64,000 nucleotides of DNA from Bacteroidota bacterium (GTDB taxonomy: Bacteria; Bacteroidota; Bacteroidia; Chitinophagales; Saprospiraceae), in the NCBI GenBank assembly GCA_020160935.1, contig JAIUPL010000019.1:62001-126000 (forward strand), read 5' to 3'. The translations under genes and the position numbers were made by a program. The notes below the pieces were generated by a model that ran no database searches, was not told where the DNA came from, and saw nothing but the letters and a program-made list of their open reading frames with translations. Positions 1,056 to 62,290 of the stretch are shown one piece after another (the first letter of the stretch is position 1; every line of letters begins with the position of its first letter).

Positions 1056-1257
1056 GGGATTGGGCGGATGATGCGGATAAAGCGGATTTTTTGTGGCCTG
1101 ACGGCCACTGGTATTCGGATTTTAAGAGGACTCTACGGTCTTTGTGTCCCTTGTGCACTTCGTGGTTTATTATAACAACCACGAAGGACACAAGGGACAC
1201 AAAGACCGTAGAGTCCTCCTTTATATGAAAAAATCCGTTTCATCCGTTAGTCCATCC
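1056..1257. repeat. Composite intergenic inverted repeat (families H and J)
   Basis: The inner palindrome 1126-1218 has about 40-bp arms (GACTCTACGGTC... against ...GACCGTAGAGTC). The flanks carry GCGGAT-type words on the left (1056-1092) and matching ATCCG words on the right (1229-1257), giving an outer, less perfect arm pair. A nested GTGGCC-TGAC-GGCCAC hairpin lies at 1093-1108. The element occupies the gap downstream of the peroxidase gene, whose stop is at 1270. Confidence 0.8.
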
Positions 1258-1269
1258 TGTCACAAGGGC

Positions 1270-2433
1270 TCATTTAAACGGATTCGAAAAACGTTTGTCC
1301 GTACGAATCGACTCATCCGTCAGGGTGTACAGGAATGCGATCAAATCCTGTTGGGCAGTTTCCGACAGGTTCATGCGTTTGGGCGTTCCGTCGGCGGTTT
1401 TCAGCATTGGGTTCAGGTTGGGGTGGTTTTGAACGCCGGAATTGTAGTGTTCTATCACCTGTTCGAGCGTTTGGAAACGGCCGTCGTGCATGTAGGGCGC
1501 CGTGAGGGAAATGTTGCGCAGGGTCGGCACTTTGAAAGTTCCCATATCAGCGGTATTGCCGGTAATGCCGCCCACGCCGGGGTCGGTGCTCGCTTCCGCG
1601 TCGAGGCCATTGCAGGCATTGGGCAAGGCGCCGATGGTCATGCGGGACGAGTGGCAGCAGGCGCAGTTTTGCAGGTAGATGGTTTTACCCCGGTTTTCGG
1701 CGGCCGTAAAATCGGGGAAATCATATTCTATGTACTCAAATGGATTTTTGGAAAAAGCCTGGTCGAATTTGCTTTGGAAAGAACCGATAGAATTGATAAA
1801 GTTGGCGACAGACTCTGTGATGCGTTTGGGTGTAACCCTTGCATCGCCATAGGCTTTTTCAAACAGCACGGAATAGAAAGGCTGACTCTCCACTGCCGCT
1901 ACGATCTCGCCCATATCCATATTCATTTCCTTCGGATTGCTCATAGACGCCATAATCTGTGCTTCCGCCGATTCACTGCGGTTGTCCCAGAAAAAGCGGG
2001 AACCCATTTGGCAGTTTTCATCACCATATTGGGAGGCAAAACTGACCACCGACGACAGTGGCAAGGAGTTGCGTTCGCCAAGCCTTCCAAACACGCCCGT
2101 GCTGACTGCTTTGTCGTCGCCAAACCCGCGTTCCTGCTTGTGGCAACTCGCGCAGGAAATGGTACCGTCTTTCGACAGACTCTGATCGTAAAACAACACG
2201 CGCCCCAGCACCGCCTTCCGTCGGTCGATGCGCGGGCGCTCTACGCCTGCTACCACCATATTGTACAGAAACTTCGGGTCGTACACATCCATTTCATCGG
2301 GCAGATTCAGGTACTGATCCAGGATGGCTTTTTCTTCCGGCAAATAGTCCGACAGCACCACCTCGGGTTTTTCATGGCATGCCACAAACAGGATACCACT
2401 CAAAAGCAGCGACAGGAGAGCAAGTTTTTGCAT
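1270..2433 (-). CDS. Di-haem cytochrome c peroxidase family lipoprotein
   Basis: A 387-residue protein of the bacterial di-haem cytochrome c peroxidase/MauG family, which reduces hydrogen peroxide or oxidises protein or small substrates using two c-type haems. The first haem site is CASCH (residues 94-98) and the second is CACCH (257-261). A YMHDG motif (314-318) lies in the C-terminal haem domain, where the family has a Met ligand. The signal sequence ends in FVAC, with Cys19 as the likely lipid-anchored residue, so the enzyme should be membrane-attached outside the cytoplasm. It is monocistronic and is flanked by intergenic palindromes on both sides. The electron donor and physiological substrate cannot be told from the sequence. 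Confidence 0.92.
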   Translation of the reverse strand: MQKLALLSLLLSGILFVACHEKPEVVLSDYLPEEKAILDQYLNLPDEMDVYDPKFLYNMVVAGVERPRIDRRKAVLGRVLFYDQSLSKDGTISCASCHKQERGFGDDKAVSTGVFGRLGERNSLPLSSVVSFASQYGDENCQMGSRFFWDNRSESAEAQIMASMSNPKEMNMDMGEIVAAVESQPFYSVLFEKAYGDARVTPKRITESVANFINSIGSFQSKFDQAFSKNPFEYIEYDFPDFTAAENRGKTIYLQNCACCHSSRMTIGALPNACNGLDAEASTDPGVGGITGNTADMGTFKVPTLRNISLTAPYMHDGRFQTLEQVIEHYNSGVQNHPNLNPMLKTADGTPKRMNLSETAQQDLIAFLYTLTDESIRTDKRFSNPFK

Positions 2434-2505
2434 GTTTTCAAATTTTAACAGGTGAATAATTGGGAAGATGCAGTGAGATGGGGAAATGCGGCAAAGAAGG
2501 AGGTA

Positions 2506-2614
2506 GGAGTTATGAGTTATGAGTTATGAGTTTTACTCACTTTGCTTTTGGCCACTCTATTAAAAAAGCCATGAGCAACGCGAATATAACTCATAACTCA
2601 TAACTCATAACTCC
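2506..2614. repeat. Intergenic inverted repeat, family E (GAGTTAT heptads)
   Basis: The left arm is built of GAGTTAT heptads and the right arm of ATAACTC heptads. The loop holds an asymmetric core (TTGCTTTTGGCCACTCTATT). The same core recurs in reverse orientation at 31253-31376. Confidence 0.85.
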
Positions 2615-2635
2615 CAAACTCTTTTTCTCAAACCC

Positions 2636-2666
2636 TTTGCTACTTCAATCAATCATCGTACCTTTG
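2636..2666 (+). promoter_or_regulatory. Promoter of rpsO
   Basis: TTTG (2636-2639), a 19-nt spacer and TACCTTTG (2659-2666) match the Bacteroidota TTTG-N19-21-TAnnTTTG promoter exactly. Transcription would begin near 2672. That gives an rpsO leader of about 155 nt containing the palindrome 2729-2820. Confidence 0.75.
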
Positions 2667-2728
2667 CCGCGCTAAAATCGGATGGATAGGCAAAAACTGC
2701 CGTTTGACCCTCTGAAATCCCATTTTGG

Positions 2729-2820
<92 letters not shown>

Positions 2821-2827
2821 AAGAAAA

Positions 2828-3408: not shown

Positions 3409-3567
3409 CACACAAAGAGGGCAGGAGTGAGTGGTGAGTAGTGAGTGGTGAGTGGTGAGTGGTGAGTAGTGAGTAGTCAGTGAGAGAAATCACTACTCAC
3501 CATTCACTACTCACTACTCACTACTCACCACTCACTACTCACCACTCACTCCTGCCCTCTTTGTGTG
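3409..3567. repeat. Intergenic inverted repeat, family F (GAGTGGT/GAGTAGT heptads)
   Basis: The outer arms are CACACAAAGAGGGCAGG (3409-3425) and its exact complement ending at 3567. Inside lie about eight GAGTGGT/GAGTAGT heptads facing ACTCACC/ACTCACT heptads. The total is 159 bp. It ends about 100 nt before the pnp start, so it may be part of the pnp leader. Confidence 0.88.
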
Positions 3568-5967: not shown

Positions 5968-5970
5968 CAG

Positions 5971-6022
5971 AGAGTGAGAGAGGTGAGAGAGTGAGAGAGT
6001 GAGAGAGTGAGAGAGTGAGAGA
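5971..6022. repeat. Single-arm GTGAGAGA octad run
   Basis: About six tandem GTGAGAGA-type 8-mers lie right after the pnp stop without a facing complementary arm. The same word builds both arms of the elements at 40629 and 44019. Confidence 0.8.
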
Positions 6023-6057: not shown

Positions 6058-6091
6058 CCGGTTGGGGTTTGTCCCCAGCCGGTTTTTTTTT
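6058..6091 (+). terminator. Terminator after pnp
   Basis: CCGGTTGGGG (6058-6067) pairs with CCCCAGCCGG (6073-6082) around a 5-nt loop, with one G-T pair. Nine T follow. This is a canonical rho-independent terminator. Confidence 0.9.
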
Positions 6092-6236
6092 GGTTATTGA
6101 TTATCGGTTATTAGTTATTAGGGCTTGGTAAGGGTTTATTTTCACAAAGGTTTGGCTGCACAACAAGGAAGCCAAACCTTTGTGAAAATAAACCCTTATC
6201 CACCCCTAATAACCAATAACTGATAACTGATAACCA
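6091..6236. repeat. Intergenic inverted repeat, family A copy 1
   Basis: The outer arms consist of TTATTAG/TTATCGG-type heptads. The inner conserved arm contains GGGTTTATTTTCACAAAGG and its complement. The loop is GCTGCACAACAAGGAAGC. The right arm ends 2 nt before the dacB ATG at 6239. Confidence 0.92.
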
Positions 6237-6238
6237 AG

Positions 6239-7564
6239 ATGGCTTTTCGCTCTTTCACCCTTCTCTTCTCAGGCCTTTTACTTTGTTTTTCCTGCACAAC
6301 GCCACGCCGGATCGCACGGAAAATGGAAAAAGAAGTGCGTCATTCTCCAGTTTTCAGTCGCGCATTTACGGGATTTACGGTAATCGACCCTGAAACAGGT
6401 AAAATACTCGCCGATGTAAACGGCGATCATTATTTTACACCTGCTTCGACTACCAAAATACTGACGCTGTATACCTGCCTGAACATGCTGGGCGATTCGG
6501 TGCCTGCCCTGCAAATACAACGGCGTGTCCTCGATGAAAGCGCCCGACAATACGCCCTGTTGCTGCGCGGAACCGGCGATCCCACTTTTTTGAGTCCTTT
6601 TTTTCAACACTGGCAAGGAACCTTCACAACCTTAAAAAACCGGCCGGAAGTATTGCAATTGCTGGCCCGCGAGCCAGCGCCCGAACGTTTCGGCCCCGGC
6701 TGGGCATGGGATGACTATCCGTACGGATTTCAGGCCGAGCGCACAGTTTTTCCGATGTATGGCGGCGTGGTGCGATATGTGCCTACTTCGGGTTTTCAAT
6801 ACGAGATTCAGCCGCCTGTTTTCAGGGAGCATTTCATCAATGTGTTCCAGAAAGGCGGTTTTGCCGATCATATCATTCGCAGCGAATTTGAAAACGAATG
6901 GCGCGTTCCAGGCCTGAATGCGCCAAAAGGGGAAAAATGGTTGCCTTTTACAGCACCCGACCGCGCTGCCTTGCTGGCCGATACGCTCGGTAAATCCGTG
7001 GAAAAATACACACCCTACCCTTACGAATTGATCCCGAACGAGTGGCAAACCCTCTACTCCACCCCACTCGATACCGTGCTGCGCCGCATGATGTACCAGA
7101 GCGACAATTTTATTGCCGAGCAAATGCTCTTGCTCTGTGCGGGCAAAAAATTCGACCTGCTGCAACAGGATACGCTCATCAACTGGATGCTCGATTCGGT
7201 GCTCAATGACCTTCCTCAGCGCCCCCGCTGGGTGGATGGCTCCGGACTTTCTCGCTATAATCTTATCAGTCCGCAAGACCTGTCCGCTGTCCTGCTTCGC
7301 CTCTGGCGCGAACAGCCGCACGAACGCCTTTTGTCTCTTTTCCCGAAAGGCGGTGTCGATGGCACATTGTCAGACTGGTATGCCGGAAAAGACGGAAAGC
7401 CGTACGTTTTTGCCAAAAGCGGCTCCATGAGCGGCGTCACCTGCCTGAGCGGCTATGTGCGCACCAAACACGGCAAATTCCTGATTTTCACCTTTATGAC
7501 CAATCATTTTGTGGGAAGTAGCCGTGCGTGGAAAGAGGAAATGCAGAAGGTTATTGGTTATTAG
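6239..7564 (+). CDS. dacB: D-alanyl-D-alanine carboxypeptidase/endopeptidase, PBP4 family (S13)
   Basis: A 441-residue class C low-molecular-mass penicillin-binding protein that trims or cleaves peptidoglycan peptides in the periplasm. The three active-site motifs are present: S70-T-T-K73, S288-D-N290 and K393-S-G395. The signal sequence ends in LCFSC, with Cys19 a likely lipidation site. The start codon lies 2 nt after a family A palindrome, and the last residues VIGY plus the TAG stop are encoded inside the next one (7550-7692). The gene is thus bracketed by two copies of the same element in the same orientation. Its closeness to a BlaI/BlaR1 pair may reflect a shared cell-wall theme, but the palindrome and a new promoter separate them. 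Confidence 0.93.
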   Translation: MAFRSFTLLFSGLLLCFSCTTPRRIARKMEKEVRHSPVFSRAFTGFTVIDPETGKILADVNGDHYFTPASTTKILTLYTCLNMLGDSVPALQIQRRVLDESARQYALLLRGTGDPTFLSPFFQHWQGTFTTLKNRPEVLQLLAREPAPERFGPGWAWDDYPYGFQAERTVFPMYGGVVRYVPTSGFQYEIQPPVFREHFINVFQKGGFADHIIRSEFENEWRVPGLNAPKGEKWLPFTAPDRAALLADTLGKSVEKYTPYPYELIPNEWQTLYSTPLDTVLRRMMYQSDNFIAEQMLLLCAGKKFDLLQQDTLINWMLDSVLNDLPQRPRWVDGSGLSRYNLISPQDLSAVLLRLWREQPHERLLSLFPKGGVDGTLSDWYAGKDGKPYVFAKSGSMSGVTCLSGYVRTKHGKFLIFTFMTNHFVGSSRAWKEEMQKVIGY

Positions 7565-7692
7565 TTATTGGTTATTAGGGCTTGGTAAGGGTTTGTTTTC
7601 ACAGAAGTTTGGCCGCACAAACTGGGAAGCCAAACTTCTGTGAAAACAAACCCTTACCAAGCCCTAATAACCAATAACTGATAACTAATAAC
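7550..7692. repeat. Intergenic inverted repeat, family A copy 2
   Basis: TTATTGG/TTATTAG heptads face CTAATAA/CCAATAA/CTGATAA heptads. The inner core is GGGTTTGTTTTCACAGAAG. The left arm overlaps the last 15 nt of dacB, including its TAG stop. Confidence 0.93.
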
Positions 7693-7698
7693 AAACAA

Positions 7699-7744
7699 GT
7701 AGGAAAAATTTCGTAGGAAAGTTTTCGTACGAAATTTTTCCTAC
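7699..7744. promoter_or_regulatory. Triple 17-bp operator of the BlaI-like repressor
   Basis: Three overlapping 17-mers fit one pattern. GTAGGAAAAATTTCGTA is at 7699-7715, GTAGGAAAGTTTTCGTA at 7713-7729, and the first sequence recurs in inverted form at 7728-7744. Copies 1 and 3 are exact inverted repeats, and neighbouring copies share 2-3 bases at each junction. The block ends 1 nt before the -7 box of the blaI-like gene, so binding there should block its promoter. Autoregulation by the encoded repressor is inference. Confidence 0.75.
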
Positions 7745-7745
7745 T

Positions 7746-7753
7746 TATATTTG
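7746..7753 (+). promoter_or_regulatory. Promoter -7 box of the blaI-blaR1-like operon
   Basis: TATATTTG matches TAnnTTTG exactly and ends 4 nt before the ATG at 7758. A transcript starting at the usual distance would be leaderless or nearly so. A weak -33 candidate lies within the operator near 7721-7726. Confidence 0.6.
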
Positions 7754-8179: not shown

Positions 8180-10489
8180 ATGGAAACGATCCCGTTTTTT
8201 ATCCCCAGTTCGCTGGGTGAAGCATTGGGCTGGATGGTACTGCACAGTATCTGGCAGGCCGGGTTAATTGCCTTGCTCACTGGTGTTTTGCTCATCGTTT
8301 TGCGCCGTAAATCGGCAAAAATGCGGTACTGGATTACCAATGCCGCCCTATTGCTGGTATTGCTGGCGGCGGCAGGCACGTTTGCTTATTACTTCCAGAA
8401 TTCGGATCTATCTGCCAGAAACGTCCCTACTTCGACTGAAAGCAGGCTGCTGCCCCACGGCGACGTTATTCCTGTAGTTGCGTTTCAGCAGGCAGAAAAG
8501 CCGATTGCATTCAACATGGGCGCTTATTTCAACCGAAACCTGCCGCTGGTAGTCGCATGCTGGTTTTTAGGGTTGTGCGTCTTTTTGCTGCGCCTGCTCG
8601 GCAATGTGGGGTATGTATACTACCTGAGAAACCACTTGAATTTCCCTGCCGAAGAATACTGGGACGATTTGCTTCAAGAATTGTTGCGCAGCGCCCACCT
8701 GCAACAACCGGTGCGCCTCGTCGAATCGGCGCTGGTGCGCACACCTTTGGTCATCGGCCATCTCAAGCCCCTGATTCTGTTTCCCATTGGCCTCATCAAC
8801 CGGCTCGATCCACACCATGTGGAAGCCATTCTGGCACACGAACTGGCACACATACTGCACCGCGACTATCTATTTAACCTGCTTCAAAGTGTAGTGGAAA
8901 CACTGTTCTATTACCACCCTGCCGTGTGGTGGTTGTCGGCCCGGGTGCGGCATGAACGCGAAATAGCAGCAGATGACGCTGCGGTACAACTTACCGGAAA
9001 ATCAATGGAATACGCCAAATCGCTGGTGCTGATTCAGGACTTTGCGCTGATGCCCATGAGCGCGTTCCCTGCCTTTTCCGGCCCTCGAAAAAACCAATTA
9101 CTCCACCGGATTCAACACATTTTACGAGTACCACAAACAACAAATTTAGCTATGGAAAAAATCATCGGAACCTGTGCCATTCTCCTGGTCATCATCGGAC
9201 TGGGAATGGCACAAAACAAAAACGACACCAACATTTCCTACCAGCATGTCGAAACCATTGCCAATGGAAACGAACTGAGCGGCGTGTGGGAAGCAAGTAT
9301 CGAAAACGACAAAGTGTGCGTCAATTTCAGCAGCCGACGCGAACATTTCTCCTGGAACAATGGCAATTGTTATCAAAAATCGGATTTTTCGGCGCTGCCA
9401 ACGGTGGAATCGGAGTTTACCCTCACACGGCCTGCCGGCGTCATGACCCTCAAGGGAAAATTTGAAAACAAGGAAGGCTATGGTCGTTTTCGCTTTGTAG
9501 CAGACGCCTCGTTTTCATCGTGGTTGAGCGAGCAGGGAATCAACGGCATCGACGAAATGGCTATGCTGAACCTGTTTCTTGCCAATATCGGAAAAGACTA
9601 CGTTCAGTCCCTGCAAAAATCCGGTCTGGGTGACATTTCCGGCGACGACCTGCAAAGCCTCGCCGTCCAGGGCGTCGATCAAAAACGCATCGGGGCAGTG
9701 CGCGAAATTTCCCAATCCCTCGACGCGGGCGATCCATCTATCGAGACCATCCTCAACCTGACGATTCACGACATCGACGAGGCGTATGTAAAAAGCCTCA
9801 GCCAGGCCGGCTTCGGGAAATTGTCGCTGGAAGACGTCATGAATGCGAAAATTCACGAAATTACACCGGAATACGCCAAACAAGTGAATGAACTGGGCTT
9901 TGGAAAACTCTCGTTTGAAGACATCCTTAATTTCAAAATCCACGAAATCACACCCGAATTTCTCAGTGGCCTGAAAAAGGCAGGTATCAACCCGGAATCG
10001 GCCGAAGACGCTATCAACCTGCGCATTCATGACATGTCGCCCGAAACCATTGCCGAGTTCAAAAAAATGGGCTTCAAAGACTTGTCTACCGAGGAAATGT
10101 TGAACCTGAAAATTCAGGACGTAACGCCTGCCTTTCTCGACGACATGCGCAAGGCGGGTTTCACCAACCTGTCGGCTGAAGACGCCCTCAACCTGAAAAT
10201 TCAGGATGTTACTCCCGAATTTGTAAAGGAAATGGAAAAAGCAGGGTTCAAAAACCTGTCTGTAGAAGACGCCCTCAACCTGAAAATACAGGACGTCCAG
10301 GCTGCCGATCTGGAAGGTTTTGCCAAACTCGGCTTTACAAAAATTAACGTCGAGGACGCTGTCAACCTGAAAATCCACGATGTTACCCCGGAATTTATCC
10401 AGTCCATGCGCAGCAAAGGCTTCGTCGATCTGGATCTGGAAGAGTATGTGAATTTGAAGGTGCAGTACGGGGATAAGATTAAGAAATAA
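8180..10489 (+). CDS. BlaR1/MecR1-like M56 membrane metallopeptidase with ten 29-residue repeats
   Basis: A 769-residue signal-transducing peptidase. The N-terminal half has several membrane segments (about 15-42, 52-72, 120-145) and a zinc motif H220-E-L-A-H224 typical of family M56. Another hydrophobic segment follows (MEKIIGTCAILLVIIGLG, about 325-343). There is no penicillin-binding sensor domain. The exported C-terminal half instead ends in ten tandem repeats of about 29 residues, of the pattern VTPEF-x8-AGF-x-x-LS-x-EDALNLKIQD (about residues 475-769). Family knowledge: BlaR1 cleaves the partner repressor on ligand sensing. Inference: the repeats form the sensor. The TAA stop is the first three bases of the following palindrome. 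Confidence 0.9.
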   Translation: METIPFFIPSSLGEALGWMVLHSIWQAGLIALLTGVLLIVLRRKSAKMRYWITNAALLLVLLAAAGTFAYYFQNSDLSARNVPTSTESRLLPHGDVIPVVAFQQAEKPIAFNMGAYFNRNLPLVVACWFLGLCVFLLRLLGNVGYVYYLRNHLNFPAEEYWDDLLQELLRSAHLQQPVRLVESALVRTPLVIGHLKPLILFPIGLINRLDPHHVEAILAHELAHILHRDYLFNLLQSVVETLFYYHPAVWWLSARVRHEREIAADDAAVQLTGKSMEYAKSLVLIQDFALMPMSAFPAFSGPRKNQLLHRIQHILRVPQTTNLAMEKIIGTCAILLVIIGLGMAQNKNDTNISYQHVETIANGNELSGVWEASIENDKVCVNFSSRREHFSWNNGNCYQKSDFSALPTVESEFTLTRPAGVMTLKGKFENKEGYGRFRFVADASFSSWLSEQGINGIDEMAMLNLFLANIGKDYVQSLQKSGLGDISGDDLQSLAVQGVDQKRIGAVREISQSLDAGDPSIETILNLTIHDIDEAYVKSLSQAGFGKLSLEDVMNAKIHEITPEYAKQVNELGFGKLSFEDILNFKIHEITPEFLSGLKKAGINPESAEDAINLRIHDMSPETIAEFKKMGFKDLSTEEMLNLKIQDVTPAFLDDMRKAGFTNLSAEDALNLKIQDVTPEFVKEMEKAGFKNLSVEDALNLKIQDVQAADLEGFAKLGFTKINVEDAVNLKIHDVTPEFIQSMRSKGFVDLDLEEYVNLKVQYGDKIKK

Positions 10490-10623
10490 GTCGTAAGTCC
10501 TGAGTCCTAAGTCCTAAGTCCGTAGAGTACACCTGATTACCCTTCAACCTCTTTTTATTAAAGCCAATGGTAATCAGGTGTACTCTACGGACTCAGGACT
10601 CAGGACTTAGGACTCAAGACTAA
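10487..10623. repeat. Intergenic inverted repeat, family C copy 1 (TAAGTCC heptads)
   Basis: TAAGTCC/TGAGTCC heptads lead into the inner motif CCGTAGAGTACACCTG, and the right arm is complementary. It lies between convergent genes. The blaR1-like stop TAA opens the left arm and the psd stop TAG lies in the outermost heptad of the right arm. Confidence 0.93.
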
Positions 10624-11273
10624 AGTCTGGCAATCACCGTCTTATTCCCCTTCACCATTTCATCCATTTTCACCTCCACTTTCGCATCGAGCGGGAGATA
10701 GAGGTCGACGCGGGAGCCAAATTTAATAAATCCCATTTCACCGCCCTGCTGCACTTCCTGGCCTTCGCCGATATACCATTTGATCCGTTTGGCCAGCGCG
10801 CCTGCAATCTGGCGCATCAAAATTTCGGCATTCCCCATGCCGTACACCACAGTGGTACGTTCATTCTCCGTGCTGCTTTTCGGGTGCCAGGCCACCAGGT
10901 ATTTCCCTTTGTGATAGCGAAAATACTGCACTTTCCCGCTCACCGGATTTCGATTCACATGCACATTGAATGGCGACATAAAGATCGACACTTGCAATCT
11001 TTTGTCTTTAAAGTATTCATTTTCAACAGTTTCTTCAATGACGCATACCTTGCCGTCGGCAGGAGCGTACACGAGGTGGTTGTCGGTGACTGCGATACTG
11101 CGTACCGGATTTCGGAAAAATTGCAGGATGATGCCGTACAGTATGACCGACAAAATAAGCAGTGGCCAGAATGCGATCGGCAGCAGTTGAAAAATGGCGT
11201 AATTGAGTCCTATCAGGACGATCGCCGAAATAGCCAGCAGGGAGTAACCTTCTCTATGAATTCGGAAGAGCAT
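10620..11273 (-). CDS. psd: Phosphatidylserine decarboxylase, short (archaeal-type) form
   Basis: Converts phosphatidylserine to phosphatidylethanolamine at the membrane. From the ATG at 11273 (MLFRIHREGYS) the protein has 217 residues, the size of the short PSD class. Two adjacent membrane helices lie near the N-terminus (LLAISAIVLIGLNYAIF and FWPLLILSVILYGIIL). The body includes FFRNPVR, APADGKV and FMSPFNVHVNR-type motifs. FGSRVD near the C-terminus contains the Gly-Ser self-cleavage site that yields the pyruvoyl cofactor. The frame stays open to 11345, but family proteins start at the inner Met. The stop codon lies in the arm of the palindrome shared with the convergent blaR1-like gene. 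Confidence 0.93.
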   Translation of the reverse strand: MLFRIHREGYSLLAISAIVLIGLNYAIFQLLPIAFWPLLILSVILYGIILQFFRNPVRSIAVTDNHLVYAPADGKVCVIEETVENEYFKDKRLQVSIFMSPFNVHVNRNPVSGKVQYFRYHKGKYLVAWHPKSSTENERTTVVYGMGNAEILMRQIAGALAKRIKWYIGEGQEVQQGGEMGFIKFGSRVDLYLPLDAKVEVKMDEMVKGNKTVIARL

Positions 11274-11388: not shown

Positions 11389-11546
11389 GTGTTTTGGTGT
11401 TTTTGTGTTTTAGTGTTTTGGTGGTGCGTTGCTTTTGGCATTTGCAGTTAAGGGAATCCTTGTCATCAATTGTACCAAGGAATGCACTACAAAAACACCA
11501 AAACACAAAAACACTAAAACACCAAAACACTAAAACACCAAAACAC
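11389..11546. repeat. Intergenic inverted repeat, family D copy 1 (GTGTTTTG octads)
   Basis: GTGTTTTG/GTGTTTTA octads (11389-11424) face about six ACACCAAA/ACACTAAA octads ending at 11546. The spacer contains TGGCATTTG, shared with the copy at 47917-48065. It ends 18 nt before the asd start. Confidence 0.9.
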
Positions 11547-11564
11547 TCTAACACATAAAAAAGC

Positions 11565-16235: not shown

Positions 16236-16455
16236 GTAGTGATGATGGTTGAGGGGTTGAGAGTTGAAGGGGTTGAGAGGTTGAGGGGTTGAGAGGTTGA
16301 GGGGTTGAGGGGTTGAGGGGTTGAGAGGTTGAGGGGTTGAGAGTTGAGGGGTTGAGAGGCTTGGGAAGGGCCAATCTAAAGGGCCTCAACTATTCAACTT
16401 CTCAACCCCTCAACCCCTCAACTCCTCAACTTCTCAACCCCATCCTCATCAACCT
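16236..16455. repeat. Intergenic inverted repeat, family G (GGTTGAGG octads)
   Basis: About fifteen GGTTGAGG/GGTTGAGA octads (16247-16360) face about seven CCTCAACC-type octads (16384-16440), so the arms are unequal. It lies between the PolX-like start and the stop of the UbiA-family gene, both on the minus strand. Confidence 0.85.
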
Positions 16456-17330
16456 TTTCCCGCCCCATACAACAGCCATGCGAACGCGCCAATCCATGCC
16501 AAAAGTACCAATTGCAGGAACAGGTCACGCAGCAAAGCCCGTGTGGGTGATTCCGTTTTATTAAAAACCAGCGTCAGTTGCAGGTATCGCAGGATCCCCA
16601 GAATGACAAAAAATGCGGTGAAATATATTCGGTCACTTCCAATACGTCCGGTCACTTCCGGTGAAAAACAGTACATCAAATACGCCACAATGGCAACCGT
16701 GGAACACACTGTAATACTCACATCCAGAAACGGCAGGTTGTAGCCTTCCAGCGCCTTGCGAAAATTATTTTCTCCCATGGCAATCACATACTCCCCGCGC
16801 CGTTTGGCTAGCCCAAGTATCAGCGCCAGCAGGAACGTCAGCACAATCAGCCATTGCGATACCGGTACGCCGGTAACGGCGCCTCCCGCAAAAACCCGCA
16901 GCAGAAACCCCAAACCTATCAGCGACACATCAATCAGGGCAATGTGTTTGAGCGAAAAAGAGTAAAACACATTAACCAGAAAATACAACAAGGTAAAAAC
17001 CAGCAGGTGTACACTTAGGTATATCGACAAGACAGCACTGCTTCCAAACAACACCAGTAAAATCACTATTGCCTGCGTTACAGTGATTGCCCTGCTCGCA
17101 ATCGGACGCTTGCATTTATCGGGGTGGTTGCGGTCTTGCGGGGCATCCACCATATCGTTGAGCACATACACCGCCGATGCCATGAGACAAAAAGCCAGAA
17201 ACCCCAGCAGCGCATCGCGCATAACCACAGGGTCGTTCAGCCGGGCTGCAAAAAATGCAGGAATAAAGATGAACAGGTTTTTTACCCAGTGTTCCGGTCG
17301 TAGCAGGGAAATGATCTGACGAGGAGCCAT
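16449..17330 (-). CDS. UbiA-family prenyltransferase, decaprenyl-phosphate phosphoribosyltransferase-like
   Basis: A 293-residue integral membrane protein with about eight helices. It has the UbiA Asp motif LNDMVDAPQDRNHPDKCKRP near residues 56-75, which binds Mg2+ and the prenyl phosphate. The N-terminal ISLLRPEHWVKNLFIF and the KRP segment resemble the subgroup annotated as decaprenyl-phosphate phosphoribosyltransferase, which makes a prenyl-linked sugar phosphate. Substrate specificity cannot be read with certainty, and a quinone-pathway role is less likely. The start at 17330 (MAPRQIISLL) was chosen because the upstream extension is not family-like and overlaps the next gene. It follows the PLP-enzyme gene by 22 nt, so co-transcription is likely. 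Confidence 0.85.
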   Translation of the reverse strand: MAPRQIISLLRPEHWVKNLFIFIPAFFAARLNDPVVMRDALLGFLAFCLMASAVYVLNDMVDAPQDRNHPDKCKRPIASRAITVTQAIVILLVLFGSSAVLSIYLSVHLLVFTLLYFLVNVFYSFSLKHIALIDVSLIGLGFLLRVFAGGAVTGVPVSQWLIVLTFLLALILGLAKRRGEYVIAMGENNFRKALEGYNLPFLDVSITVCSTVAIVAYLMYCFSPEVTGRIGSDRIYFTAFFVILGILRYLQLTLVFNKTESPTRALLRDLFLQLVLLAWIGAFAWLLYGAGKG

Positions 17331-18527: not shown

Positions 18528-18678
18528 ATTGGTTATCAGTTATTAGTTATTGGTTATCAGGGCTGGGTAAGGGATTATTTTCACAAAAGTTTGGTTTCCT
18601 TATCTGAAAGACCAAACTTTTGTGAAAATAATCCCTTACCCAGCCCTGATAACCAATAACTAATAACTGATAACCAAT
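18528..18678. repeat. Intergenic inverted repeat, family A copy 3 (between divergent genes)
   Basis: The arms are TTATCAG/TTATTAG/TTATTGG heptads with an inner GGGATTATTTTCACAAAAG arm. The loop is in the reverse orientation relative to copies 1 and 2. It sits between two divergent starts, so it cannot be a terminator for either flanking gene. Confidence 0.93.
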
Positions 18679-20517: not shown

Positions 20518-20538
20518 TATTTAGTGTACCCGGCGGAA

Positions 20539-20779
20539 CAGGATGGGACAACGGATGAAACGGATTCACCGCTGATTGGTTTTTTATAATTTTTTAGTGG
20601 AACAGGTGTACTCTACGCATTGTGTACTTTGTGAAACCGTAGTGAACTTGGTGGTTAAAATTTTTTACCACAAGGGGCACCAAGGTTTCACAAAGTACAC
20701 AATGCGTAGAGTACGCTTGTTTCAATCTTAGAGAAGTACTATATAGACAAAAATCCGTTTTCTCAGTTGTCCCATCCTG
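20539..20779. repeat. Composite intergenic inverted repeat, family H
   Basis: The outer arms are CAGGATGGGACAAC... (20539 on) and GTTGTCCCATCCTG (ending 20779). The inner arms are GTACTCTACGCATTGTGTAC (from 20608) and its complement ending at 20714. It lies between convergent genes (barrel protein plus, argH minus). The inner motif contains CTCTACG, the complement of CGTAGAG. Confidence 0.87.
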
Positions 20780-20800
20780 CCACGACGGGTAAAATCGCAC

Positions 20801-34922: not shown

Positions 34923-35022
34923 AATAAATTGTTGCCAAACGCCCCCTATCTTTCCGTCGCAGCGCAGGCCACCTTCTCCAGCCTCGCCCTGTTCAGTTTT
35001 TTATCAAAACGAAAAAGCAACC

Positions 35023-37720: not shown

Positions 37721-37845
37721 AACTAAATTCTAAAAGATTGACAATGAACGGCCTGTGGACACTTGAATGCCGCTCTGCCGTAAAAAATTCAAGTTCGGGT
37801 ACTATTTGTAAAAAATACACGAATGCCGCAAAAATAGACTATTCC

Positions 37846-38022: not shown

Positions 38023-38101
38023 ACAGGCAAGGCAGCGAAATCATCGTTTTGTCGTTTCCTGTAAAAAGCATTCATCTTTTCACCTTTAATTTTTCGCGCC
38101 G

Positions 38102-38437: not shown

Positions 38438-38581
38438 TTATTGGTTATTGGTTATCAGGGGTGGGTAAGGGTTTATTTTCACAAAAGTTTGGCCACACAA
38501 ATAGAGAAGCCAAACTTTTGTGAAAATAAACCCTTACCCACCCCTAATAACCAATAACCAATAACCAATAACTGATAACTA
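38423..38581. repeat. Intergenic inverted repeat, family A copy 6 (between convergent genes)
   Basis: TTATCAG/TTATTAG/TTATTGG heptads, with a near-perfect inner arm GGGTTTATTTTCACAAAAG and its complement. It contains the stop of the small membrane protein in one arm and the stop of prfC at the other end. Confidence 0.94.
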
Positions 38582-40629: not shown

Positions 40630-40875
40630 AGAGAGGTGAGAGGGTGAGAGAGTGAGAAGGTGAGAGAGTGAGAAGGTGAGAGAGTGAGAAGGTGAGAGAG
40701 TGAGAGTTCGTAGAGTGGACCGCTTCGCTCCTAAATTTTTAAAATGAGTCATTCACATAATTCAAACAGTTACTTTTGCCCCCTAATTATCTCATCCTCT
40801 CACTCTCTCACACCTCTCACTCTCTCACTCTCTCACACTCTCACTCTCTCACTCTCTCACTCTCTCACTCTCTGT
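40629..40875. repeat. Intergenic inverted repeat, family B copy 1 (GTGAGAGA octads)
   Basis: The left arm (40629-40707) and right arm (40797-40875) are built of GTGAGAGA/GTGAGAAG octads and their complements. An inner CGTAGAGTGGACC motif is present. The unpaired middle holds a TACTTTTG promoter-like box (40771-40778). The right arm ends 1 nt before the nspC ATG. Confidence 0.9.
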
Positions 40876-40876
40876 G

Positions 40877-44017: not shown

Positions 44018-44018
44018 G

Positions 44019-44157
44019 CTAGAGAGAGTGTGAGAGAGTGAGAAAAGTGAGAGAGTGAGAGTTCGAAGAGTGTACTGCTTCTCAACCAATATCTCAAGAG
44101 TAATACCGTACACTCTACGGACTCTCACTCTCTCACTTCTCTCACTCTCTCACTTCT
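44019..44157. repeat. Intergenic inverted repeat, family B copy 2 (divergent region)
   Basis: GTGAGAGA octads (44019-44076) face CTCTCACT octads (44117-44157). The inner motifs are TTCGAAGAGTGTAC and GTACACTCTACGG. It lies between the divergent peptide-transporter and secreted-protein genes. Confidence 0.88.
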
Positions 44158-44201
44158 GATAAAGCGCAAATGTAAAAAATGATTTGTATGCCGCTCCTTC
44201 C

Positions 44202-44209
44202 TATCTTTG
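44202..44209 (+). promoter_or_regulatory. Candidate -7 box upstream of the small secreted protein gene
   Basis: TATCTTTG is a full TAnnTTTG match 47 nt upstream of the ATG at 44256. A TTTG (44183-44186) lies only 15 nt upstream, which is short for the -33 element. Confidence 0.4.
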
Positions 44210-44255
44210 CCGGACAATTACAGTAATAAAATTTTTCAGCAATCAGATTCGACGC

Positions 44256-47911: not shown

Positions 47912-47916
47912 AGTAT

Positions 47917-48065
47917 GTGTTTTTGTGTTTTGGTGTTTTAGTAGGGCTTCGCTCATGGCATTTGAACGAAATGGCATAAGCCTCTTTCTAAAACCAAGAG
48001 TTATAAACACAAAAACACTAAAACACAAAAACACAAAAACACATAAACACCAAAACACCAAAACA
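47917..48065. repeat. Intergenic inverted repeat, family D copy 2
   Basis: GTGTTTTG/GTGTTTTA octads face ACACAAAA/ACACCAAA octads. The spacer shares TGGCATTTG with copy 1 at 11389-11546. It ends 9 nt before the next start codon. Confidence 0.9.
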
Positions 48066-48074
48066 CCCTTTCCC

Positions 48075-49469: not shown

Positions 49470-49502
49470 ATGGTTCGGCTTCGCCTCACATTTAGATAAA
49501 GC

Positions 49503-49703
49503 GTTCGGCTTCGCCTCACAGGGGGATTTGGGATTTTGCGGATTAAGCGGATTATATAGATTTTTATGGCCTGACGGCCATTTATTTTTGATTTAATTTG
49601 ACTACAAAAAATCAAAAAGTATGGCCGTCAGGCCATAAAAATCTATATAATCCGCTTAATCCGCAAAATCCCAAATCCCTCTCGCCGTTAGGCGAAGCCG
49701 AAC
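49503..49703. repeat. Intergenic inverted repeat, family J (convergent region)
   Basis: The outer arms are GTTCGGCTTCGCCT and GGCGAAGCCGAAC. Next come GCGGATTAAGCGGATTATA words and their complement, then ATGGCCTGACGGCCAT and its counterpart around an AT-rich loop. A second copy of the GTTCGGCTTCGCCTCACA word lies just before it (49472-49490). GGCCTGACGGCC also occurs in the element at 1056-1257. Confidence 0.9.
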
Positions 49704-49716
49704 AGTCTATCTAACA

Positions 49717-55700: not shown

Positions 55701-56082
55701 CCATATTCACGAAAAAGCAGTCGGGCTTCTGGCATTTTACAATAATCTTTATACGGGCAAAACACTTGGATGGCGGCTGGCAGCCTTCGTATCTGTATTG
55801 CAGGATATGCTCGCCGCAGCATTCTTCCAGGTTGCCGGAAAAGACGAGTTCACCCGTGTTTTTTAAATCAAAACAGACACTGTCGGGGGTTGTCAGGAAA
55901 ACAAAATGTGGGGCTGTCGGAGGAAGCACGTCGTTGCTCGTGACGTTGTACACCAGGTTCTGGCCCGGCATGATGCAGATGGAATCGTCGACTGCAATGG
56001 TCAAATTGCCGCCCTGGGATAACAATACAGCCGGTAAAAAGGCAAACGCGACGAGGATGCAGGAAGTAATCGGTGTTTTCAT
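49717..56082 (-). CDS. Giant T9SS-secreted PKD/Ig-like domain protein (2121 residues)
   Basis: A 2121-residue exported protein. The signal peptide is MKTPITSCILVAFAFLPAVLLSQ. PKD domains with the FGDG-type signature are visible as WFWDFGDGGTSTMF, TWAWSFGSTQQDP and WLWKFGDGSFNGAQ. Many Cys-containing Ig-like modules with GxYxVxVTDANGC endings (for example TYLVTTTDANGCTA, SYSVVVTDANGCTA) lie between them. A late section has repeated Cys-rich segments of the type NQCCYSISLFNN. The last roughly 85 residues (IPNPSGGEFTVQTT to EKVVIE) form a type A T9SS sorting domain. Inference: a large surface adhesin or filament. The ligand is unknown. A nested AT-rich palindrome lies just upstream of its start. 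Confidence 0.93.
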   Translation of the reverse strand: MKTPITSCILVAFAFLPAVLLSQGGNLTIAVDDSICIMPGQNLVYNVTSNDVLPPTAPHFVFLTTPDSVCFDLKNTGELVFSGNLEECCGEHILQYRYEGCQPPSKCFARIKIIVKCQKPDCFFVNMDDYASSDGAGVPPQCAFACEHSASTYFTGYDPNSTYVWNVTGGTFVPGANPAAILVTWGAMGSGSVSVTVTDANNVVTDLDVCVDILQSPVAAFTVSDDSICLNSPVNFMNNSVGGSTWFWDFGDGGTSTMFNATHTYTTPGNYTACLYVTRNNFDAEGNALCCCSDTTCVDIVVDSLPGPNIYCVSTLCAGDSSKYWTDATNCGTYNWSVLDENGLPLPFTGQGTDTICVQWGTGPFGTVVLEVANCDSTYCDGPVSITVPIISPTTAISGDNVVCENSVATYTVPKWMSVYYNWQVSGAISWTGQGTNTITVQWGAAPGPGIINLQYYSSFLGGLPGHDPEDCGGMASLTVAIKPAFDITAPPSPTCVNTSSTFFATATPSATYTWTVTPTAPFTGQGTNSITVNWTTGPGNYVITAVPTNPAAYCNGIATATMRVVEVQKPDAITGPIEICPGISYTYFGQTTQTGVGFVWTITGGTPASATGNPVMITWNPTGPYAIGLQNSLLNAPFCPSDSIQLKIKPKLINGPLTITGPPACINTTQNYIAGPAQHPEATYNWAVSPATMGSVVGGQGTPNAQIQWNNTGGSATLILNVSLCSGSQAISIPVTLNAPVVPVITQTGILCPGVMATLNAGAGFTSYQWSPSGNTQTISISSGGTYLVTTTDANGCTAIDTYQAVAQPGPVAAISTPDPNHLCIVPPNSNTVTILAQTGVGYTFNWFCNGTPQVLPPTQATFTHTNTNVQASFAYWVKVTDANGCMNTSNVIPVVQDSCKADTLCVPQPYTLSFTAANQMPNCNIVDFTVSASGNVTLTGWDFNDPLSNANTGTLANAQHVYQTVGCTKVYLYGSVPEQAPGTGMCPVEYADGVCIPLVADFIYTDSCGKVTFTDKSTFLPGENPVTWAWSFGSTQQDPMHVFPGPGAYSVTLTVTNANGCQASITKTVLAGGAVPPGIIINPSPACVGDPFSFSGSGANIINWLWKFGDGSFNGAQNPSHSYLSSGSYNVMLTVVDANGCQSMATQTLLVNPAVPPAVISVAPSLIVCAGTNVTLTAPAGYTYVWSNFATTQSIVTSVAGTYSVIITDVNGCSRVLDPVTVVILPPPTAAISGNPVICDAGCTTLSATAGQGYTYQWLDNLGNPIPGEVSQTLNVCDFNLLPSYSVVVTDANGCTAVSAPVVVSVKTSPSFSIAISPDDCEGMPVTLSVTPVQPNVVYGWSNGASGPVITVIQAGTYIAIGTDTTSGCSFTASATIHPLPDLCLVPAGCYKACNPDTICGPDGLAGYQWNLNGVPITGANGQCLVVTQSGTYTLTGTTSFGCSATSDSLILMLMDCSCGNLTVSAEPVSDSCCWTLSYSNPSAVLYGVVIHSSDTDFNFDLGSLDPSLSVFSIGANTISLVNSTTNAPLPTGALPTFLRFCLENIQNTPQQVIFDWYDFDFNIACSDTLELNCPNEPDCLYVQHDSIYCDGGQVVYTMTVCNPIDNDFSVGYIVMQPVSPAGVIMTPSTIDETANPIAPGDCRTYTILLSGPNLAEQTFCFTLMAHDEKPELIDTTHCCSLDTIYCIDIPDCNPCDDIGVEEVLPFSTSPSNQCCYSISLFNNYAAGYFDGIGLCMLSGGTVLTMNNPFGSGWVTASYTPTMIVLNAAPPLGTSLPLGVFQLPDICIRTDQAPPQLLEIKWMQGDSIVCRDTIPLTCEPPCGYISGENIVCDPAAGTWVYQGTIKNTSNTTMGEAHIVFTSPAGLSIYNQTIPLGAGLPPNGTQTFSVVLGPPAAPGDTICFTVALHALDDNDQHTNCCNFEDCIVLPECAVPLDCACEDLHGSVLNSGISYVTAGNIPYTATFTPDGALPCDDVYWYWPDVSGVQQSSGTQAMMHTFPGLGKYTVCAYIFRSDDQGQQCSVEICKTLRFSPAQDDGTILIIPNPSGGEFTVQTTSPWQAPVQLRLYDLQGRVVKEWTAENAAGESALKVWLDNTPKGMYLLEIVCGGEKRVEKVVIE

Positions 56083-56088
56083 ACAAAG

Positions 56089-56195
56089 GGATTTTCATGT
56101 ATTAAATAACAGTATTTTGTTTCATGTAAAATGTATAACAAAATCATACATTTTATCAAACAAAATTAAACTGAAACAAAAATACATGAAAATCC
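56089..56195. repeat. Nested AT-rich inverted repeat upstream of the giant gene
   Basis: Three nested arm pairs are present: GGATTTTCATGTATT with AATACATGAAAATCC, TTTTGTTTCA with TGAAACAAAA, and AAAATGTAT with ATACATTTT. The element ends 7 nt from the giant gene's start codon, so it would form a long hairpin in that mRNA leader or an operator site. It does not share the word-built arms of the other families. Confidence 0.85.
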
Positions 56196-56339
56196 ACTTT
56201 TTCAAACAATCGTTTTATCAGATGGGCGACATTTCAGGCAGGTCGAAAGAAACGATACATCACGCACCCTTGCTTTTCTGTTTCTTCCATAGTTGCCTGG
56301 TTTTCAATGTTCTACTGATAAAATTACAGTCGTCTGGAA

Positions 56340-61399: not shown

Positions 61400-61404
61400 T
61401 CCGT

Positions 61405-62073
61405 TTAAGAAACCTCCCGAATCACCTTTGCAGGGCTTCCAAATGCGATAACGCCCGCCGGGATATCCTTTGTTACCACCGAGCCGGCGCCGATGACAGA
61501 ACCCGCGCCAATGGTAATTTGATCGATCACAGTAGCGCCCGCTCCTATAGTGACGCCTTCGCCAATACGGCAGGCGCCGGCTACATTGGCGCCGGGGTTG
61601 ACGGTGGCAAATCGTTCGAGCACTGTATGATGGCCCACGCTGGCATTTCTATTGATGACTACAAAATCGTCGAGCCGCGCATACGGCGCTACGACCGATA
61701 GCGGGCTGATGTGATTGCCTCTACCCATTTCGACACTTTTTGAAACGACTGCCGAAGGATGTATCGTGGTGTAGTACCGTTGTTCGTCGATCTGAAAATG
61801 CGCCTGAAAAAACTCGAAAATCGCTCTTCTGCCTTTGCCAATAGAACCAATCAGGCAAGGAATGGCGGCCTCCGGAGCCCAGTTCTGCCAATGGTGTACG
61901 GTACTCTGCACACCGGGCGCTTCATAGGCATATGCAAGCGAAGTATTCTGTTCAGGCGGCAGGTTGGCGATAATATCTGCCTGGATTCTTTCATCTGGAA
62001 ATAGACAAGAAAGACAATCCACGAGGACGGAGATGCCGAAATTGCTTTGCCCGAGCAGGTAGAAATGAGGCAT
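61405..62073 (-). CDS. NeuD/PglD-like acetyltransferase (left-handed beta-helix)
   Basis: A 222-residue enzyme. The N-terminal Rossmann-like part reads HFYLLGQSNFGISVLVDCL and the C-terminal half is hexapeptide repeats ((V/I)GAGATVIDQITIGAGSVIGAGSVV) that form a left-handed beta-helix trimer. PSAVVSKSVEMGRGNHISP and NASVGHHTVLE hold the family's catalytic His region. Such enzymes O- or N-acetylate nucleotide sugars or sialic acids. No other glycan genes adjoin it. It lies in an apparent operon with the hybrid sensor, with a 5-nt gap, so it may be regulated by or act with that sensor; this is inference. Confidence 0.88.
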   Translation of the reverse strand: MPHFYLLGQSNFGISVLVDCLSCLFPDERIQADIIANLPPEQNTSLAYAYEAPGVQSTVHHWQNWAPEAAIPCLIGSIGKGRRAIFEFFQAHFQIDEQRYYTTIHPSAVVSKSVEMGRGNHISPLSVVAPYARLDDFVVINRNASVGHHTVLERFATVNPGANVAGACRIGEGVTIGAGATVIDQITIGAGSVIGAGSVVTKDIPAGVIAFGSPAKVIREVS

Positions 62074-62103
62074 GGTGTGCTTTTTAGATATGACCTGTGA
62101 TGT

Positions 62104-62290
62104 ATTTCCCGCAGAGTCGTCTTCCGTAGAGTATTTTCCGGAGAGTAATTTCCCGCAGATTTCCGCAGATTTTCCCGCAGACCGTAGAGTACACTTTTTA
62201 CGATAATCATTTAGAGTAAGTGTACTCTACGATCTGCGGAAATCTGCGGGAAAATCTGCGCAATCTGCGGGAAAAATACTCTACGGGAAA
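62104..62290. repeat. Intergenic inverted repeat, family K (TTTCCCGCAGA words)
   Basis: TTTCCCGCAGA/TTTCCGCAGA words face TCTGCGGGAAA words. An inner arm CCGTAGAGTACACT pairs with AGTGTACTCTACG. An outer CCGTAGAGTATTTTCC also pairs with AATACTCTACGG. It lies between the BKACE and acetyltransferase genes on the minus strand. Confidence 0.9.

What the first reader, a model, noticed from the sequence alone, without database searches (positions are those of the whole stretch)
1056..62290. Superfamily of long intergenic inverted repeats built from 7- and 8-bp words
At least twenty inverted repeats of 90-250 bp fill most gaps between genes, roughly one per 3 kb. Most arms are runs of a degenerate heptad or octad: TTATTAG (A, six copies), GAGTTAT (E), TAAGTCC (C), GAGTAGT (F), AATGATG (I), GTGAGAGA (B), GTGTTTTG (D) and GGTTGAGG (G). 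The words differ between families but the architecture is the same. They occur between convergent, tandem and divergent genes, and ordinary terminators exist as well, so a plain terminator role does not explain them. I know of no named repeat class with word-built palindromic arms. Inference: an undescribed intergenic element system, spread or maintained by an unknown mechanism.
Basis: partly seen in the sequence, partly recalled or inferred. Interest (0 to 1): 0.88.

Follow-up and report, generated by a model that had tools for sequence, protein, structure and literature searches.

The report
Self-copying palindromes between bacterial genes
A Saprospiraceae-type bacterium carries large numbers of long DNA palindromes, many built from short repeated words, in the spaces between its genes, and comparison with a sister species suggests that the two halves of a palindrome copy each other while it stays in its place.

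Summary
The window holds 24 inverted repeats scoring 21 or more (one shuffle: maximum 17). 856 kb of the same genome hold 149 (3% of the DNA); family A is also multi-copy in sister species. By an automatic test 85 of 151 elements show a word period; 66 do not. Convergent gaps are favoured (2.15 elements per intergenic kb; tandem 1.06, divergent 0.44).
Against the nearest genome (84-88% nt identity in most aligned blocks), 14 elements share gap and family. Arms agree with each other at about 90% within each genome, but orthologous arms at only 70%; for family A that is no better than non-orthologous copies. Word length or number changed in both arms together; the spacer is inverted at 4 of 10 testable loci. 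At one locus the palindrome has copied 27 nt of a neighbouring gene end, inverted, to its other side; the sister species lacks this. Wobble mismatches are not enriched (118 GU, 128 AC), so RNA pairing is probably not what keeps arms alike.
Best reading: small non-coding palindromic repeats whose arms are kept alike at DNA level by template switching. How they disperse is unresolved. Closest kinds: REP/BIME, MITE, heptad arrays.

The parts
1119..1226 (.). Family J palindrome (CTTTGTG-type motifs, CTCTACG near the base); G182 has only a 32-nt stretch between anchors here
2423..2698 (.). Family E palindrome (GAGTTAT heptads about 2507-2613; core ACTCACTTTGCTTTTGGC in the left arm)
   Evidence: same family at same gap in G182
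2724..2822 (.). Family I palindrome (AATGATG); spacer conserved, whole element 28 nt shorter than in G182
3409..3567 (.). Family F palindrome (GTGAGTAGTGAGTGG heptads); conserved outer CACACAAAGAGG, each arm 21 nt longer than in G182
5969..6022 (+). Single-sided octad array (family B word) just after the PNPase stop; not in a detected palindrome
6090..6237 (.). Family A palindrome (TTATTGG/TTATTAG/TTATCAG heptads); G182 has a family C element within family A sequence here
7550..7692 (.). Family A palindrome; 19 alignment columns changed in both arms relative to G182; spacer scored as inverted
7697..7746 (.). Short palindrome next to the family A element (score 21)
10431..10678 (.). Family C palindrome (TAAGTCC/GAGTCCT heptads 10487-10621; core CGTAGAGTACACC); in G182 one arm carries family B-like words outside a C core
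11389..11559 (.). Family D palindrome (GTGTTTTG octads)
16247..16459 (.). Family G palindrome (GGTTGAGG octads; 9-10 nt words GGTTGATGA/GGTTGATAAG at the same locus in G182)
18528..18678 (.). Family A palindrome, arms 68/68 identical
20527..20791 (.). Family J palindrome; absent in G182
27753..27890 (.). Family C palindrome; G182 has a 1.4-kb stretch here that ends in part of a family C arm
31232..31401 (.). Family E palindrome; a family C element sits in the same gap in G182
34760..34923 (.). MITE-like palindrome without words, absent in G182, candidate TA target duplication (read by eye)
35718..35884 (.). Family A palindrome between convergent genes
37844..38027 (.). Family A palindrome; spacer inverted relative to G182
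38420..38582 (.). Family A palindrome between convergent genes; a MITE-like element is inserted in its arm in G182
40630..40873 (.). Family B palindrome (GTGAGAGA octads; heptad word in G182)
43968..44218 (.). Family B palindrome (octads; heptad word in G182), core CGTAGAGTGTAC
47914..48066 (.). Family D palindrome; 74-nt spacer is in reverse orientation in G182
49492..49714 (.). Long palindrome without a clear 7-8 nt word (GGATTTTGCGGATTAAGCGG type) between convergent genes
56068..56215 (.). Weak palindrome, score 25
62104..62306 (.). Family H palindrome (TTTCCCGCAGA motifs; core CGTAGAGTACAC)

Best explanation
These are small non-coding palindromic repeats (median 154 bp, median spacer 15 nt) amplified in the intergenic DNA of one Saprospiraceae-type clade. 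At DNA level the two arms form a hairpin or cruciform during replication. The polymerase switches template from one arm to the other, so each arm is repeatedly rewritten from its partner. This keeps the arms alike, inverts the spacer, carries word-number and word-sequence changes into both arms, and now and then runs past the palindrome and copies flanking DNA in inverted form. Slippage within the 7-10 nt word arrays supplies variation. Shown: presence, copy number in the sample, placement, arm coupling at 13 compared loci, spacer inversion at some loci, one run-on copy. Inferred: the enzymology (template switching rather than RecA recombination between arms) and the role of slippage. Inferred and weaker: the core shared by the family A copies of a species means that sequence also moves between loci, by ectopic conversion or by insertion over old copies. 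The 3'-end placement most likely reflects tolerance: insertions near promoters are removed.
For: Arm coupling: over 13 shared loci mean arm-arm identity is 0.896 (window) and 0.901 (G182), mean orthologous identity 0.697. For family A, four orthologous pairs (0.68-0.76) are no closer than all own-by-G182 pairs (median 0.705, n=56); own copies agree at 0.818 (91 pairs of 14 copies, one of them doubtful), G182 copies at 0.757 (6 pairs of 4).
In place: at F 3409 and I 2724 outer edges and spacer are conserved while both arms gained or lost words.
Word change in both arms: B 8 to 7 nt at two loci, G 8 to 9-10 nt.
Columns: 112 changed in both arms with the pair kept, 62 in one arm, 22 otherwise, 421 invariant.
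Spacers: of 14 loci 4 could not be tested, 4 are inverted, 4 direct, 2 unclear; clearest is D 47914, inverted score 44, direct 11, null 95% 10.
Run-on copy: L200 (G000:C4) has 85/85 arms that include the last 24 coding nt and the stop of the left gene; the inverted copy lies in no called gene. In G182 the palindrome ends at the stop, the right flank differs, and the copy matches G000's own version of the gene end.
DNA not RNA: sense-strand mismatches in tandem gaps GU 118, AC 128, other 236, in 77 of 80 elements.
Tracts: longest perfect run p<=0.05 in 32 of 95 elements tested, 4.8 expected.
Insertion-like: gap minus element has median -2, 61, 198 nt (convergent, tandem, divergent); element-free gaps 36, 62, 229.
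Against: No strain-level pair was available, so single events were not seen; G182 differs by 12-16% in most aligned blocks. Gap-column counts are biased, because arms were defined by pairing. Of the four inverted spacers three are only 15-17 nt; the direct call at G 16247 rests partly on word sequence within the spacer. The run-on copy is one clear case. Arm-to-arm RecA recombination would leave similar marks. Likeness of cores across a genome needs a second process that was not identified. Insertions born perfect would also show high arm identity; conserved edges and spacers argue against that at only some loci. The GU/AC test has limited power for very long stems.
Confidence: 0.68

Rival explanations
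1. Ordinary MITEs: each copy arose by transposition as a fresh palindrome, moved by an unidentified transposase, and decays afterwards.
For: Presence/absence differences (20527-20791 and 34760-34923 absent in G182; other elements present only in G182) and nested copies in G182. Residual gaps resemble normal gaps. Seven of 140 elements with arms of 40 bp or more are perfect.
Against: 14 loci keep the same family in the same gap in both species while the sequence is replaced. Array length changed in place with conserved edges and spacer at F 3409 and I 2724. A candidate TA duplication was seen only for MITE-like copies without words. The two Y1 transposase-like genes have other palindromes beside them; other transposases were not sought.
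Confidence: 0.35
2. Selected RNA structures: bidirectional terminators or mRNA 3'-end stabilisers, with pairing kept by compensatory mutation.
For: Bias to 3' ends: 2.15, 1.06 and 0.44 elements per intergenic kb (convergent, tandem, divergent); stop codon to arm edge median 1 nt, start codon median 70 nt.
Against: No GU excess (118 against 128 AC). Canonical terminators are not clearly rarer where an element is present: convergent ends 8/98 with and 10/70 without, tandem 6/80 and 11/198 (gaps of 40 nt or more, first 400 nt, loops of 3-8 nt only). Four other genus members have 0-1 elements per 10 kb in the 13-20 kb examined of each, so the genus does not need them.
Confidence: 0.2
3. REP/BIME elements moved by a RAYT transposase.
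For: Small extragenic palindromes favouring 3' gaps, as described for REPs (PMC3733652, abstract). A RAYT-like Y1 gene lies at G000:C29.
Against: That gene is flanked by a different short palindrome, of which three patterns found 0, 3 and 2 matches in 856 kb. No conserved unpaired tag was seen at the feet of the word families (by eye).
Confidence: 0.08
4. Assembly artefact or chimeric inversion in a draft genome.
For: Palindromes are a known weak point of assembly (recalled); G000 is a 51-contig draft.
Against: The same families occur at the same gaps in separate assemblies with different arms.
Confidence: 0.02

Closest known systems
Heptanucleotide direct repeats (TAACTGA arrays of Beggiatoaceae, cyanobacteria and some Bacteroidetes; PMC4679880)
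   Same: Intergenic arrays of 7-nt words; family A arrays contain TAACTGA on one strand; indels mostly in 7-nt steps between two close Cyanothece strains are reported there.
   Different: In the main genome described there 169 sets are direct and one indirect, mostly just upstream of start codons; here 102 of 151 non-coding arrays lie in palindromes, words differ by family, and 3' ends are favoured.
REP / BIME elements (PMC3733652, abstract)
   Same: Short intergenic palindromes, several species-specific families, units often close in opposite orientation, mostly downstream of genes in unidirectional and convergent gaps.
   Different: REPs are 20-40 bp with an unpaired GTAG or CGTC motif at one end; these have a median length of 154 bp with word arrays plus core, and the genome's RAYT-like gene is not linked to them.
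MITEs and ERIC/RU-type elements (ERIC recalled; RU seen only as an abstract opening, PMC2759123)
   Same: 100-200 bp non-coding repeats amplified between genes, presence/absence between species, nested insertions.
   Different: Word-built arms, many families in one genome, both arms rewritten in place, no demonstrated target duplication or partner transposase for the word families.
Template switching at quasi-palindromes (PMC8604942, PMC8794818; abstracts)
   Same: Arm homogenisation, spacer inversion and reverse-complement copying.
   Different: Described as a mutation mechanism, shown in yeast genes and in RNA genes; here it would govern a repeat class spread through a bacterial genome.

Membership tests
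MITE | Terminal inverted repeats | tested here: met
   The whole element is an inverted repeat.
MITE | Target-site duplication | tested here: inconclusive
   Candidate TA at 34760-34923 and at the MITE-like insert in G182, read by eye; none clear for word families, whose flanks are diverged.
MITE | Autonomous partner transposase with matching ends | not tested
   Only Y1_Tnp genes were sought.
REP/BIME | 20-40 bp palindrome with unpaired GTAG or CGTC motif | tested here: not met
   Median length 154 bp; no such tag seen in the aligned elements (by eye).
REP/BIME | RAYT gene flanked by the same palindrome | tested here: not met
   The RAYT-like gene at G000:C29 is flanked by a different short palindrome, rare in the sample.
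Heptad tandem arrays (TAACTGA-type) | Intergenic tandem words of 7 nt | tested here: met
   Period 7 in 54 of 151 elements, periods 6 and 8-10 in 31, none in 66; arrays.
Intrinsic terminators | Short GC-rich hairpin followed by T-run | tested here: inconclusive
   A scan with loops of 3-8 nt found no clear difference between gaps with and without elements; the elements' own longer spacers were outside that scan.
Template-switch-evolving inverted repeat | Arm homogenisation | tested here: met
   Arm-arm 0.90 against orthologous 0.70 at 13 loci.
Template-switch-evolving inverted repeat | Spacer inversion | tested here: met
   Of 14 loci: 4 inverted, 4 direct, 2 unclear, 4 untestable.
Template-switch-evolving inverted repeat | Reverse-complement run-on copy | tested here: met
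   One locus, L200 against L227.
Known Rfam RNA | Match at curated threshold | tested here: not met
   0 matches in the window.

The most novel reading that the evidence does not exclude
A genome-wide class of bacterial DNA elements whose palindromic form is kept neither by a transposase nor by RNA-level selection but by replication itself: each hairpin rewrites its own two arms, and the whole family is further homogenised across loci, so that in each species words, cores and spacers turn over together while genomic positions stay fixed.
Probability: 0.45. Interest if true: 0.82.

Novelty: new variant of a known kind. Interest (0 to 1): 0.68.

Why it matters
Arm complementarity that covaries between species is normally read as evidence for a functional RNA. 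Here such covariation is seen at 13 compared loci, and mismatches across the sampled elements lack the wobble bias that RNA selection should leave. With roughly a thousand such palindromes expected in the genome (extrapolated), this species and its sister are a natural test bed for template switching as the force that makes and keeps hairpins. It also bears on how bacteria tolerate long palindromes, on how small repeats evolve in concert across a chromosome, and on how gene ends change: several predicted proteins end in peptides encoded by the words, such as VLSPES.

Tried and rejected
Cyanobacterial origin: first suspected from the heptads. The HIP1-type octamer occurs 60 times against 7 for its control, but protein families and RF3 relatives place the genome in Bacteroidota, Saprospiraceae type.

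RAYT/REP mobilisation: rejected for the word families.

Local spread: family A copies within 40 kb are more alike (0.859; same contig farther 0.758; other contigs 0.742; 4 of 2000 permutations), driven largely by the window's cluster. C, E, H and J show no such effect, H leaning the other way. So no general rule.

Loss of a hairpin nuclease as cause: the canonical SbcD model is over its cut-off in only 5 of 42 genus genomes, and G000 has no match at all. G182, at least as rich in elements, keeps a distant Mre11/Rad50-like gene pair; G000 shows only a 54-residue weak match to the Rad50-like protein. So the loss does not track the elements.

Elements as substitutes for terminators: no clear support.

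Stop codons as the reason for non-triplet words: arms read inward from the genes have more stops (0.079) than outward (0.045) or shuffled (0.060) (264 arms). The gene's own stop often lies in the arm, so this is not independent.

Orientation of unpaired arrays in tandem gaps: 18 with the genes, 17 against. Within 15 nt of the stop 17 with and 7 against; farther away 1 with and 10 against. This hints that arrays read inward from the nearer gene end; not pursued.

Copied promoter box at C14:125898: one element of 149 has it in both arms, but the genes are divergent and may each have their own box.

A wider search for a family A 19-mer found 34 copies in G000 and one each in 6 of 394 other Bacteroidota genomes.

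Literature: seven searches. Judged by titles and abstract openings, none of the listed papers describes word-built palindromes in Saprospiraceae; one search returned no paper. The library lacks most subscription journals, so absence from print is not claimed.

Mended since: occupancy figures (the earlier ones used only gaps of 60 bp or more, which the elements themselves lengthen), the word-period count (66 of 151 without), the G164 comparison (two regions, not three gaps), unpaired-array orientation, and the claim that hundreds of elements covary. 
Full report
WHAT IS THERE. A gapped inverted-repeat search of the window finds 24 hits with scores 21-78 and six with scores 16-18; one Markov shuffle of the window reached 17. 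Tandem Repeats Finder independently finds the 7- and 8-nt arrays. When the arms are aligned, 17 of the 24 show a word array by my reading, usually outermost, followed by an inner core that is not repetitive and an unpaired spacer. Family A is heptads (TTATTGG, TTATTAG, TTATCAG) followed by a core such as GGGGTGGGTAAGGGTTTATTTTCACAAAAGTTTGGC. Families C, H and B carry CGTAGAGTACAC (or CGTAGAGTGTAC) towards the spacer, and J carries it near the base in the opposite sense (by eye). In the larger sample an automatic test finds a period of 6-10 nt in 85 of 151 elements and none in 66. Some elements without words look like ordinary MITEs, for example 34760-34923.

WHERE IT COMES FROM. The window is 64 kb of a 5.84-Mb, 51-contig genome. 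Two of the 29 proteins scanned carry the Por secretion tail. The closest named RF3 relatives are uncultured Bacteroidetes and Saprospiraceae metagenome genomes at 85-91%. Rfam finds no known RNA in the window at its gathering scores.

HOW MANY. In 856,327 bp of this genome (the window plus stretches of three other contigs) 149 elements of score 25 or more could be assigned to a gap between called genes. They make up 25,505 bp; median length is 154 bp and median spacer 15 nt. Extrapolated, that is about a thousand per genome (inference; the window is denser than the rest). The 12-mer CGTAGAGTACAC occurs 191 times in this genome, once in each of 27 of the 149 other genomes of the family searched, and not in the remaining 122. 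In the stretches examined there are 3.34, 3.25 and 3.40 elements (score 22 or more) per 10 kb in G182, G164 and G188, and 0-1 in G195, G156, G158 and G186. RF3 and SecDF place G182, G164 and G188 nearest, with G155 close by. So this is mainly one clade's amplification. Palindromes with other words occur in more distant genomes too, such as L015 and L028.

PLACEMENT. Gene calls were made here from codon usage. Elements per intergenic kb are 2.15 in convergent, 1.06 in tandem and 0.44 in divergent gaps. By number of gaps, 49 of 121 convergent, 80 of 412 tandem and 19 of 120 divergent gaps hold an element; if only gaps of 60 bp or more are taken there are 50 elements for 78, 80 for 253 and 19 for 118 gaps, but the element itself lengthens the gap, so that count is biased. 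No element's midpoint lies inside a called gene. The median distance from stop codon to arm edge is 1 nt (n=180, 86 stops inside the arm), and from start codon 70 nt (n=118, 9 inside). If the element is subtracted, the rest of the gap has median -2, 61 and 198 nt for convergent, tandem and divergent gaps; element-free gaps have 36, 62 and 229. The elements therefore look like additions to compact gaps, better tolerated near 3' ends.

SAME PLACE, REWRITTEN SEQUENCE. Contig G182:C29 is collinear with the window from its start to about 53.9 kb, at 84-88% identity in most blocks, lower in a few. At 14 loci both genomes have the same family in the same gap by my reading; at one of them, C 10487, the G182 element has family B-like words in one arm. 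For 13 of these loci I measured identities. Arm against arm averages 0.896 in the window and 0.901 in G182. Orthologous arms average 0.697. For family A, the four orthologous pairs measured (0.68-0.76) are no closer than all own-by-G182 comparisons (median 0.705, n=56), whereas copies within the own genome agree at 0.818 (91 pairs) and within G182 at 0.757 (6 pairs). In G164 family A words with a different core, ending in CATTGC.(C/T)TTGGC-like sequence, occupy the gap of window 35728 and a gap in the region where the window has 37844 and 38420; at window 47914 (family D) G164 has family A instead. So position, and often word family, persist while the sequence is replaced in both arms.

SIGNS OF COPYING BETWEEN ARMS. 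(1) In alignments of the four arms per locus, 112 columns differ between species in both arms with the pair kept, 62 differ in one arm only, 22 otherwise, 421 are invariant; gap columns are not used because arms were defined by pairing. (2) At F 3409-3567 the outer 12 nt and part of the spacer are conserved, yet both arms are 21 nt longer than in G182; at I 2724-2822 the spacer is conserved and the element is 28 nt, four words, shorter, shared between both arms. (3) The word itself changed in both arms at B 40630 and B 44024 (octad to heptad) and at G 16247 (octad to 9-10 nt). (4) Spacers: of 14 loci, 4 had a spacer too short in one genome, 4 are inverted, 4 direct and 2 unclear; D 47914 is the clearest (inverted 44, direct 11, null 95th percentile 10 from 300 shuffles). 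(5) Mismatches are clustered: the longest perfect run is unusually long in 32 of 95 elements tested, 4.8 expected. (6) At G000:C4 (L200) both arms are 85/85 identical and include the last 24 coding nucleotides and stop of the left gene; the inverted copy lies on the right, in no called gene. In G182 the gene end is present in a diverged form, the palindrome ends at the stop, and the right flank is different sequence. The copy in G000 matches G000's own gene end, so it was made after the split.

NOT AN RNA EFFECT. If pairing were kept for RNA, mismatches on the transcribed strand should favour GU over AC. In 77 tandem-gap elements (three of 80 with more than 20% mismatches were dropped) there are 118 GU, 128 AC and 236 others among 5,118 positions. 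The test has limited power for very long stems, where single mismatches matter little.

MOBILITY. There is evidence of insertion as well as rewriting: 20527-20791 and 34760-34923 are absent in G182, several elements are present only in G182, and G182 has a family C element within family A sequence and a MITE-like element inside another family A arm. One gap has E in the window and C in G182. The two Y1 transposase-like genes of the genome have other palindromes beside them. The process that disperses word elements, or homogenises them between loci, is not identified.

INTERPRETATION. The set of signs (arms homogenised, spacer inverted, flank copied in reverse) is the one described for template switching between inverted repeats in yeast (PMC8604942, abstract and outline) and proposed for the origin and upkeep of RNA hairpins (PMC8794818, abstract, outline and opening lines). 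What is unusual here is scale: a whole repeat class in a bacterium. Word arrays of 7 nt have a precedent in TAACTGA repeats (PMC4679880, abstract and sections 3 and 10 read), and placement resembles REPs (PMC3733652, abstract and outline). I therefore call it a new variant of a known kind, small palindromic intergenic repeats, with a DNA-level upkeep mechanism that is supported at the loci compared but not proven.

Noticed in passing
G000:C29:2317-2838 (L180): RAYT-like Y1 gene with a short palindrome (GTAGTTGGCG...) on both sides that is rare elsewhere in the sample.
   Followed up: partly
G000:C42 (L181:9793-10245): IS200-type Y1 transposase-like gene beside its own hairpin (L181:9580-9680).
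   Followed up: no
L206:4902-8431 (G182): Adjacent Mre11-like and Rad50/SbcC-like genes in the sister genome. G000 has no SbcD-model match and only a 54-residue weak match to the Rad50-like protein; the SbcD model is over its cut-off in 5 of 42 genus genomes.
   Followed up: partly
window 6239-10489: Serine carboxypeptidase (S13, weaker beta-lactamase-fold match), BlaI-type repressor and BlaR1-type M56 protein in a row.
   Followed up: no
G000 C43:26334-26452, C43:34414-34546, C43:97499-97634 and others: Predicted proteins whose C-termini are encoded by family C words (VLSPES and similar), so elements appear to have altered gene ends.
   Followed up: partly
L224, L225, L226: Three Bacteroidota genomes of one other genus carry a short family A-word palindrome in one similar context (by eye; below the hairpin finder's threshold of 20). 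L222 and L223 carry direct arrays of such words.
   Followed up: partly
unpaired arrays in tandem gaps, own sample: Arrays within 15 nt of a stop read with the gene 17 to 7; those farther away read against it 10 to 1.
   Followed up: no
window 13951-14275: Coding tandem repeats in the gene at 12711-14381.
   Followed up: no
window 49717-56082: Very long ORF of 2121 aa on the minus strand, not scanned for domains.
   Followed up: no
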